From Desulfuromonadales bacterium (GTDB lineage: Bacteria > Desulfobacterota > JAENJC01), in NCBI GenBank assembly GCA_919902985.1, contig CAKKSC010000012.1:1-44759 (forward strand): 44,759 nt of DNA. The letters are read 5' to 3'. The position numbers and the translations under genes are program-made. Below are positions 28,720 through 31,534 of this stretch, in pieces. Below the pieces are notes generated by a model. It had not been told where the DNA came from and made no database searches. It saw only the letters and a program-made list of their open reading frames with translations. The first letter of the stretch is position 1, and each line of letters begins with the position of its first letter.

Positions 28720-28746
28720 AGTTTAAATTAGCAGAAGGGACTTTTG

Positions 28747-29061
28747 GGGTCACCCATGCCGTAAGCCACTAAAGGGGTGGTTAACAACCATTAGACCTAA
28801 AAAACCAATTGGACACGGCATGGAACCGACGATTTTCTGGTCCGCTAATTGCGGAAAGGGCCGACACACAACAGGCACTGCTAAATTACCGGCCTTAATC
28901 CTGATGGGTGACTGGCGCAGTGAAGACTGACGCCGAAACTTAAAGAAACTACGGCAATGGCAAGGAGATTGTTAACTGAAATTATAAACAAGAAAAGCTC
29001 TTTTTTTCTTGCATAGGGGTAGTCTTTCCTCTTGACAGGGCCTTTTAAATGGGTGACCCAT
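28747..29061. mobile_element. MITE-like structured non-coding element
   Basis: About 315 bp without a gene. GGGTCACCCAT (28747-28757) is inverted at the other end (29049-29059), and ACTTTTG flanks both sides (28740-28746, 29062-29068) like a 7-bp target duplication. Inside are several stems: CCATGCCGT with ACGGCATGG (28754-28762/28815-28823), TCCGC-GCGGA (28841/28851), GGCCG-CGGCC (28859/28890), and a nested GGCG-CAGT-GAAG-ACTG-A-CGCC (28914-28934). A third copy of ATGGGTGAC lies inside at 28904-28912. No transposase is nearby. It could be a MITE, an insertion-sequence end or a structured RNA gene; strand unknown. Confidence 0.55.
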
Positions 29062-29079
29062 ACTTTTGACCCATACTTT
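29054..29079 (+). repeat. Two tandem copies of TGACCCATACTTT
   Basis: A perfect 13-bp direct repeat (29054-29066, 29067-29079) that spans the right end of the structured element and touches the broken start of the alanine dehydrogenase fragment. It partly explains the apparent ACTTTTG duplication, so that duplication should be treated with caution. Confidence 0.8.
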
Positions 29080-29084
29080 GCTCC

Positions 29085-29453
29085 CCGAGGCTTGTGACGA
29101 AAGAGATGGTGTCAAAAATGAAAAAGGGCTCTGTCATAGTTGACGTATCCATAGACCAGGGCGGTTGCATAGAGACGTCAAAAAGGACGACCCATAAAGA
29201 ACCTGTCTACAAGGTTGACTGGGTTACCCACTACTGTGTTGCAAACATGCCTGGGGCCGTGCCAAGGACTTCAACATTTGCCCTCACCAATGCTACCCTG
29301 CCGTATGTCTTGAAGATCGCTAACCTTGGGCTGGAAGAGGCCGCACGGAAGGATGCAGGTCTCGCAAAGGGGATAAATACCTATGAAGGCAGGTTGACAA
29401 ACAGGCCAGTGGCCGAGTCGCTGGGGCTGAATTATGAGGAATTGAAATTGTAG
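29085..29453 (+). pseudogene. ald: Alanine dehydrogenase, 3' fragment only
   Basis: The intact frame reads [20 protein letters not shown], then [25 protein letters not shown] and LTNATLPY, which is the C-terminal third of alanine dehydrogenase (full proteins are about 370 residues). Roughly the first 240-250 residues, with most of the catalytic and NAD-binding parts, are missing. The homology begins about 25 bases after the structured element. The remaining ~120 codons have no internal stop, so the loss may be recent. A GTG or ATG could still start a fragment, but it would not be active. Confidence 0.85.
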
Positions 29454-29464
29454 GGCTGTGGGCT

Positions 29465-29500
29465 CCCTCCCCTTCAAGGGGAGGGTCAGGGTGGGGATGG
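29465..29500. repeat. CCCTCCCC hairpin repeat, left of DUF559 gene
   Basis: CCCTCCCCTTCAAGGGGAGG forms a hairpin and is followed by GTCAGGGTGGGGATGG. It matches the inverted reading of 29881-29916 at 32 of 36 positions. Two of the four differences are paired changes that keep the hairpin stem. Confidence 0.8.
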
Positions 29501-29515
29501 GGTAAAAATGTTCGT

Positions 29516-29959
29516 ATGATAGGTCAGACTAACAAAGCAATTATTAAAAACGAGCTTCAACGTCATCTCCGCAAGACCATGACTGATGCTGAACGGCTAC
29601 TCTGGCAAGCATTGCGCAGCAGGCAAATGTCCGGATATAAGTTCCGTCGGCAACATCCTTTTGGAGACTTTATTATGGATTTTGTATGTCTTGAAAAGAT
29701 GCTGGTAATCGAGATAGACGGTGGACAGCACGTAGAGCGTCAAGCCTTGGATAATGTGCGCACTGAAAAACTCGTAAATGCTGGCTTTCGCGTCCTGCGG
29801 TTTTGGAACCATGAAGTTCTTAATGAAATTGAGGCTGTTAAGGAAAGAATTTGGATGGAATTGCAGAAAGCTGGTGGAACCCATCCTCACCCTAACCCTC
29901 TCCTTGAAGGAGAGGGAACACTATATCCCATCAAATTTATTGACCATCCCAAACCTTAA
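29516..29959 (+). CDS. DUF559 (Vsr-like) endonuclease-domain protein
   Basis: Small protein of 147 residues with the DUF559 domain, distantly related to very-short-patch-repair nucleases. It has LRKTMTDAERLLWQALRSRQ, YKFRRQHPFGDFIMDFVC, the acidic core VIEIDGGQH, and VLRFWNHEVL. The C-terminal ~25 residues (THPHPNPLLEGEG onward) are translated from a palindromic repeat and are not part of the domain. The function of the family is not established. Inverted copies of the repeat lie on both sides and a further inverted 9-mer brackets the unit (ATGTTCGTA at 29508, TACGAACAT at 29981). No good ribosome-binding site precedes the ATG. Confidence 0.85.
   Translation: MIGQTNKAIIKNELQRHLRKTMTDAERLLWQALRSRQMSGYKFRRQHPFGDFIMDFVCLEKMLVIEIDGGQHVERQALDNVRTEKLVNAGFRVLRFWNHEVLNEIEAVKERIWMELQKAGGTHPHPNPLLEGEGTLYPIKFIDHPKP
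29881..29916. repeat. CCCTCTCC hairpin repeat, inside DUF559 3' end
   Basis: CCATCCTCACCCTAACCCTC is followed by TCCTTGAAGGAGAGGG, the inverted partner of 29465-29500. It is translated as part of the DUF559 C-terminus. Confidence 0.8.
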
Positions 29960-30761: not shown

Positions 30762-31172
30762 TTAATGCTTACTCACCAGCTCAATAAATTCCGCAGCATT
30801 GACAATCTTTATATTGCCATAGCTCTTTAAATCCAGCAGGTGTTTGTCGCCGGAGACTATGTAATCTGCATCGGCAGCAAGGGCGCATTCGATAAAAACA
30901 TCATCGTCCGGGTCGTCTTTCACAACTTTAATGCTTTTATCAGGATAAATAGTATCGGAGATTGCTTCCAGTTCGCGTTCTACAGCCAACAGCTGAGGTG
31001 CGGTAAACCGGAATTTGCGACCGCCAAGTATCTCCCTTATCTCTTCAAACATAAGTTTGGAAAAGAATAGGCTGATTTTCCCTTCAATGGCGAGACTCAA
31101 AACCTTTCTTGGTTTGCCGCCAAAGATGACGGCTGAGATAACTACATTGGTATCCAGCACAGCCTTGATCAA
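30762..31172 (-). CDS. PIN-domain toxin of a type II toxin-antitoxin pair
   Basis: Putative ribonuclease toxin of 136 residues. The acidic PIN residues are visible: LDTNVVISA near residue 7, MFEEIREIL near 43, KDDPDDDVFIECAL near 93, and ADADYIVSGDKHLL near 110. The sequence matches the family often annotated as 'toxin component, PIN family' and not the short VapC class. It starts with TTG that overlaps the antitoxin stop codon, so its translation depends on the antitoxin. Stop TAA at 30762. Confidence 0.85.
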   Translation of the reverse strand: MIKAVLDTNVVISAVIFGGKPRKVLSLAIEGKISLFFSKLMFEEIREILGGRKFRFTAPQLLAVERELEAISDTIYPDKSIKVVKDDPDDDVFIECALAADADYIVSGDKHLLDLKSYGNIKIVNAAEFIELVSKH

Positions 31173-31420
31173 TGGCGGGTCTTCTTTTTTGCGCGATGTT
31201 TTTTGATCTCTGCCTCAATATCCTCTTCTTTCAATCCTAAATCGGTTCTCTGTTTATCACCCAGAGAAAAGATGTCATCCCACCGTTTTCTGCGGTCAAG
31301 ATAAAGTCTCGCAGCTTCCCTGATGAATTCGGAACGGCTCCGGAACTCATTTTTAGCCGCCTTGTCTATTTCTTTCAACAGATCTTTTTGAAATGCAATA
31401 TTAACTGTACTTGTCTGCAT
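31169..31420 (-). CDS. Ribbon-helix-helix antitoxin
   Basis: DNA-binding antitoxin of 83 residues. It starts MQTSTVNIAFQKDLLKEIDK (beta strand then helix) and continues RSRSEFIREAARLYLDRRK, the ribbon-helix-helix pattern of CopG/MetJ types; the charged C-terminal part would bind the PIN toxin. GGAGG precedes the ATG at 31420 by five bases, so an upstream in-frame start at 31468 is rejected. Likely autorepressor of the operon. Confidence 0.85.
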   Translation of the reverse strand: MQTSTVNIAFQKDLLKEIDKAAKNEFRSRSEFIREAARLYLDRRKRWDDIFSLGDKQRTDLGLKEEDIEAEIKKHRAKKKTRH

Positions 31421-31534
31421 GACCCCTCCATCATCTTGCCTATCTTTTCTAAGGTCTATTATATACAATCATTGTATACTGTCAATTATTTTTGCGGCTA
31501 TTCGAACAGGCATAGCGAGTAGATGGGTGTCCCT

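What the first reader, a model, noticed from the sequence alone, without database searches (positions are those of the whole stretch)
28740..29068. Structured non-coding element with inverted ends at the break point of a truncated gene
A ~315-bp stretch without a gene has 11-bp inverted ends (GGGTCACCCAT at 28747, its complement at 29049), a third internal copy of ATGGGTGAC at 28904, at least five stems (9-bp CCATGCCGT/ACGGCATGG and a nested GGCG-CAGT-GAAG-ACTG-CGCC hairpin the clearest), and ACTTTTG on both flanks like a 7-bp target duplication. The left end can pair either with the internal copy or with the right end. It lies exactly where alanine dehydrogenase loses its first ~245 residues. 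No transposase is near. It may be a new MITE, an orphan insertion-sequence end or a structured RNA gene.
Basis: partly seen in the sequence, partly recalled or inferred. Interest (0 to 1): 0.65.

Follow-up and report, generated by a model that had tools for sequence, protein, structure and literature searches.

The report
Remnant of an RNA-guided jumping gene
The stretch is the broken right-hand end of an IS110-type jumping gene, including most of the gene for the RNA that such elements use to find where to cut and join DNA; it is a dead remnant rather than a new kind of element, but its relatives show how one part of that guide RNA recognises the element's own end.

Summary
Window 28753-29059 is the 5'-truncated 3' non-coding region plus right end (RE) of an IS110-family insertion sequence (ISGsu4-like; transposase matches NCBIfam 'IS110 family RNA-guided transposase'). 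Intact relatives run: left end TGATAATCATnTAAAAGGC - DEDD transposase - 400-500 nt 3' non-coding region - RE GCCTTTTAATGGGTGACCC. In the window the left end, transposase and first RNA module are gone.

A covariance model of the 108-nt module finds it in 29 of 395 genomes of the phylum and in 12 of 14 plasmid-borne relatives, mostly just downstream of the transposase; 13 of 27 pairs show compensatory changes.

Only CCCAT of the left 'inverted end' belongs to the element; GGGTCA is junction sequence. There is no target duplication. The ald gene breaks at 29084/29085, not at the element's edge. Target guides were not resolved. Verdict: remnant of a known kind.

The parts
28753..29059 (+). 5'-truncated 3' non-coding region plus right end of an IS110-family (ISGsu4-like) insertion sequence
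   Evidence: blastn/nhmmer copies with different flanks and a precise right end; intact relatives have the transposase upstream
28753..28860 (+). conserved RNA module (covariance model R1): basal stem, two inner hairpins, GAUUUUCUGG hairpin, GGUCCGC hairpin
   Evidence: R1 107.6 bits; 13 of 27 pairs with changes on both sides
28754..28762 (+).
   Evidence: helix 1: 5 of 10 pairs with compensatory change
28815..28823 (+). 3' arm of the basal stem
28861..28894 (+). variable segment between conserved blocks; candidate place of a target-binding loop (not shown)
   Evidence: alignment (length and sequence vary); target matches not significant
28904..28912 (+). ATGGGTGAC, inferred donor guide for the element's own right end
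   Evidence: shares 13 non-consensus substitutions with the RE 9-mer over 31 copies, 0 of 200,000 permutations
28915..28935 (+). hairpin next to the donor guide
   Evidence: sequence; fold; region conserved in alignment
28989..29011 (+). CAAGAAAA/TTTTCTTG hairpin upstream of the right end, kept as a hairpin of changing sequence in relatives
29032..29037 (+). TTGACA, -35-like motif of the right end (in a circular form it would face the -10-like TGATAAT of the left end, about 20 bp apart)
   Evidence: conserved; promoter role inferred from circle junctions described in PMC11187229
29038..29048 (+). right subterminal inverted repeat (GGGCCTTTTAA; its complement TTAAAAGGC lies at the left end of intact copies)
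   Evidence: left ends, right ends
29049..29059 (+). right terminus ATGGGTGAC(CC); flanks differ from copy to copy from here on
28732..28752 (+). left junction: not element and not shared with the sister genome G001 (synteny ends at 28731); GGGTCA at 28747-28752 completes the apparent 11-bp inverted end
29060..29084 (+). right junction, 25 bp of unassigned sequence between the right end and the ald fragment
   Evidence: ald homology starts at 29085
29085..29453 (+). 3' fragment of alanine dehydrogenase (ORF 29094-29453)
   Evidence: PF01262 profile positions 112-213 of 214; intact copy in G002 elsewhere

Best explanation
Window 28753-29059 is the right-hand remnant of an IS110-family insertion sequence of an ISGsu4-like group in which the guide RNA lies 3' of the transposase gene. 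In an intact copy the 3' non-coding region would be transcribed into a bridge/seekRNA that binds the DEDD transposase; the conserved segment ATGGGTGAC in that RNA pairs with the element's own right end (donor guide), and other, variable parts should pair with the target; the transposase then joins the ends and the target without a target duplication. In the window the left end, the transposase gene and the first RNA module have been lost in a rearrangement that also joined a cbiQ neighbourhood to a fragment of ald, so this copy is inactive. Shown: homology, architecture of intact relatives, precise right end, conserved RNA structure, covariation of internal segment and right end. Inferred: transcription, binding to the transposase, role in target choice, order of the rearrangements.
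For: Copies with different flanks and one precise right end. IS110 transposase (PF01548/PF02371; NF033542 187.9 bits, cut-off 140) directly upstream in the same orientation in own contig C23, G021, G003, G144 and most covariance-model loci. Left end and subterminal repeat in intact copies. RNA model R1 in 29 of 395 genomes and in 12 of 14 IS110 copies fetched from plasmids. 13 of 27 pairs with compensatory changes against 6.3 in shuffles. Internal guide versus right end: 13 shared non-consensus substitutions in 31 copies, reached by 0 of 200,000 permutations; 4 shared in the 22 copies outside the plasmid set, reached by 13 of 200,000. The layout agrees with published IS1111/IS110 systems (PMC11187229, PMC11208160).
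Against: The window copy itself has no transposase and no left end, and whether its RNA is complete is unknown because the 5' end of the RNA in this group has not been mapped. No match between variable segments and target flanks was found. In 7 of 31 copies guide and right end differ, several of them decayed copies. The quick-calibrated model gives only rough E-values.
Confidence: 0.92

Rival explanations
1. A mobile MITE: a non-autonomous short element with 11-bp inverted ends, mobilised in trans by an IS110 transposase.
For: Perfect 11-bp inverted pair at the edges; several solo copies without transposase exist; one internally deleted copy with both true ends exists in G084 (L057).
Against: The left GGGTCA is not shared by any other copy; solo copies begin at many different positions of the element, as truncations do; the true left end TGATAATCATnTAAAAGGC is absent here; no target duplication.
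Confidence: 0.04
2. A free-standing structured RNA gene or cis-regulatory RNA that is merely picked up by insertion sequences.
For: Strong fold and compensatory changes; some copies without a transposase.
Against: Module, right end and transposase recur as one unit in distant groups of bacteria; the internal segment covaries with the IS right end, which is expected only of an IS guide RNA; no Rfam family matches.
Confidence: 0.03
3. On the left junction only (compatible with the best explanation): the left GGGTCACCCAT is the outer end of a second, inverted right end, fused to the RNA module at the shared CCCAT by a microhomology deletion.
For: GGGTCACCCAT is exactly the complement of the last 11 bases of a right end, and the element's own sequence supplies only CCCAT; inverted neighbouring copies exist elsewhere (G144).
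Against: Six matching bases can arise by chance (about 1 in 4000 per trial); no intermediate was found.
Confidence: 0.4

Closest known systems
ISGsu4-like IS110-family elements (for example AP028202.1, Paraburkholderia largidicola)
   Same: Same order of left end, transposase, RNA module (R1 47.8 bits), internal guide, TTGAC, subterminal repeat and right end; transposases about 45-52% identical
   Different: The window copy lacks left end, transposase and first module; the repeat is TTAAAAGGC instead of TAGCCGGCC or TAGCGGACC
IS1111 group and its seekRNA (PMC11187229) or IS1111 bridge RNA (PMC11208160)
   Same: Long 3' non-coding region with the RNA, short 5' one, subterminal inverted repeats of about 9 bp
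   Different: Bases outside the repeats are about 10 on the left and 9-11 on the right, not the 7 and 3 described for IS1111; the 3' region here holds two related RNA modules
IS621 bridge RNA (IS110 group, PMC11208160)
   Different: The IS621 RNA lies 5' of the gene; target guides and right donor guide were not identified here
MITEs
   Same: Short, non-coding, apparently symmetrical edges
   Different: No true left end, no target duplication, variable 5' truncation among copies

Membership tests
IS110 family (DEDD transposase elements) | DEDD N-terminal domain plus Transposase_20 domain | tested here: met
   Met in intact relatives (L008, L032); the window copy has no transposase, so it is a remnant of a member
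IS110 family (DEDD transposase elements) | No target duplication | tested here: met
   None flanks the window copy or copies with both ends
IS1111 group | Subterminal inverted repeats of 7-17 bp | tested here: met
   TTAAAAGGC / GCCTTTTAA and, in Burkholderiales, TAGCCGGCC / GGCCGGCTA; only the right one is present in the window
IS1111 group | Long non-coding region downstream of tnp | tested here: met
   About 400-500 nt downstream in L032, L035, L041, L142
IS1111 group | Terminal extensions of 7 bp left and 3 bp right outside the repeats | tested here: not met
   About 10 bp left and 9-11 bp right; so filed under the IS110 family, with an IS1111-like layout only
bridge RNA / seekRNA | Conserved RNA secondary structure in the non-coding end | tested here: met
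bridge RNA / seekRNA | Segment complementary to the donor end | tested here: met
   (right end only; a guide for the left end was not identified)
bridge RNA / seekRNA | Segments complementary to both target strands | tested here: inconclusive
   No signal above background in 9 left-flank and 17 right-flank cases
bridge RNA / seekRNA | RNA expressed and bound by the transposase | not testable with these tools
   no expression data
MITE | Both ends present, repeated with the same boundaries | tested here: not met
   Left boundary not shared
MITE | Target-site duplication | tested here: not met
   ACTTTTG copies are not adjacent to both ends
Rfam RNA families, HEARO / IscB omega RNA included | Match to the Rfam model | tested here: not met
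   No match at gathering threshold; only two chance-level hits up to E = 5

The most novel reading that the evidence does not exclude
The many solo right ends with a precise 3' end and variable 5' truncation, of which the window copy is one, arise by a one-ended insertion process of RNA-guided IS110 elements rather than by decay of full copies.
Probability: 0.05. Interest if true: 0.6.

Novelty: new member of a known kind. Interest (0 to 1): 0.3.

Why it matters
It turns an apparent orphan RNA or MITE into a remnant of a known RNA-guided recombination system, and the relatives collected on the way give covariation evidence for a donor guide in the 3' bridge/seekRNA of a large group (ISGsu4-like) that Rfam does not cover. 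That group would be a source of diverse RNA-guided recombinases for testing.

Tried and rejected
Rfam at gathering and permissive thresholds: nothing. DNA similarity to phages and plasmids: no match, although a protein search finds distant plasmid relatives. Search for target guides by matching flanks to the RNA, copy by copy and over all copies against mismatched pairs: no clear signal. Right donor guide against the left end: a 7-of-8 match (TGATTTTC) in some copies, which is within chance for about 450 nt and does not covary in the Burkholderiales copies, so not claimed. Empty sites for solo right ends: flanks of L005, L078 and L087 find long matches in sister genomes that do not bridge the element, so insertion versus decay stays open. 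Papers on solo or non-autonomous IS110 ends: none found in the held library.

Full report
What is in the sequence. The stretch folds better than all 100 shuffles on either strand.

It is a repeated element. The same genome holds two further pieces, both at contig ends: C23:1-102 (98% identical to the left part) and C6:22999-23053 (the right end). Fourteen of 99 genomes searched hold copies, with different flanks. The copies share a precise right end, TTGACAnnGnCCTTTTAATGGGTGACCC with few changes. On the left, the shared sequence begins at 28753 (CCCATGCCGT) or runs further upstream into another, related hairpin module; none has the window's GGGTCA. So the outer half of the apparent left inverted end is junction sequence.

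It belongs to an IS110-family insertion sequence. In C23 and in G021 an open reading frame for an IS110 transposase (PF01548, PF02371) ends just upstream of the element in the same orientation. Copies with both ends (L032, L035, L053/L074, and L010 with an internal deletion in the gene) start with TGATAATCATnTAAAAGGCACCTCC and end with the right end above. The subterminal repeat TTAAAAGGC is found inverted at both ends. The transposase scores 187.9 bits with NF033542, 'IS110 family RNA-guided transposase' (cut-off 140) and shows sequence similarity to the solved ISCro4 and IS621 transposases. The closest annotated name is ISGsu4. The window's own genome has only one recognisable IS110 transposase, the internally deleted one in C23.

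The RNA. An alignment of 11 copies of the 108-nt module gives a consensus fold with 27 pairs, 13 of which have compensatory changes; shuffles give 6.3 on average, and sliding the partner by one to three columns gives 1-4. A covariance model finds it in 29 of 395 genomes of the phylum, mostly with the transposase directly upstream, and downstream of the transposase in 12 of 14 plasmid copies, all of them from Burkholderiales or Pseudomonas; the two more distant copies, from Vibrio and Manganitrophus, did not match. No Rfam family matches.

The internal copy is a guide. ATGGGTGAC recurs in the RNA as CCTGATGGGTGACTGG and at the right end as AATGGGTGAC. Where one changes the other tends to change to the same base: ATGGATGAC in L010, ATGGGTGTC in L018 and several Burkholderiales copies, ATGGGTGCC in L008 and L132, ATGGGTGTG in L149, ATAAGTGTT in L155. 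Over 31 copies there are 13 shared non-consensus substitutions; none of 200,000 permutations reaches that. With the 22 copies from outside the plasmid set alone, 4 are shared and 13 of 200,000 permutations reach that. Permutation ignores relatedness, so these are not exact probabilities; dropping three near relatives leaves 10 shared and still 0 of 200,000. The match stops at the element's terminus. This is what the left donor guide of a bridge RNA does in IS621 (PMC11208160). The target guides could not be located.

The window copy. It lacks the left end, the gene and the first module. Synteny with G001 stops at 28731, and homology to the intact ald of G002, which lies elsewhere in that genome, starts at 29085. 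The remnant therefore sits at a rearrangement junction with 21-25 bp of unassigned sequence on either side; it did not simply insert into ald at its edge. A deletion between CCCAT in the module and CCCAT of a second, inverted right end would explain GGGTCACCCAT; this is inference.

Solo right ends. Of 27 right-end matches in 148 genomes most stand without a transposase and inside contigs, beginning at many positions of the element; left-end matches inside contigs are fewer, most of them lying at contig ends as expected of full copies. One copy in G084 has both ends and an internal deletion. Whether solo right ends come from decay or from one-ended insertion could not be settled, because no empty site could be read; decay is the default.

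Comparison with what is known. The layout (short 5' end, long 3' non-coding region with the RNA, subterminal repeats) is that of the IS1111 group, but the bases outside the repeats are about 10 and 9-11 rather than 7 and 3 (PMC11187229), so I file it under the IS110 family with an IS1111-like layout. Durrant et al. predict such RNAs for most elements of these groups (PMC11208160), so this is a new member of a known kind.

Noticed in passing
window 29464-29504 and 29880-29921: A DUF559 gene (29516-29959, PF04480) is flanked by copies of a roughly 40-bp repeat (CCCTCACCCTAACCCTCTCC type) that matches at many places in G001 and G002.
   Followed up: no
window 29054-29079: Tandem 13-bp repeat TGACCCATACTTT x2 that overlaps the right terminus; origin unknown.
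   Followed up: no
window 30762-31468, minus strand: Adjacent PIN-domain (PF13470) and ribbon-helix-helix (PF01402) genes, a likely toxin-antitoxin pair.
   Followed up: no
L071 1501-1609 (G011:C25): A 109-bp stretch with the IS left end at both edges in inverted orientation and target-like flanks on both sides; looks like a palindromic non-autonomous derivative.
   Followed up: no
L057 1154-1522 (G084:C13): Internally deleted copy of about 370 bp that keeps both the left end and the right end.
   Followed up: no
left flanks in L052, L053, L068, L069, L125 and others: Recurrent left target GAGTCAAGAGCAGAC(T/C) shared by copies in several genomes; other target classes are TTCTATTTTCCAGGGC (L032, L120) and AATGCAATAnnGCAAGCC (L010, L035).
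   Followed up: partly
L053 1-1522 and 1909-2092 (G144:C3): A full copy and a solo right end in opposite orientation, 387 bp apart.
   Followed up: no
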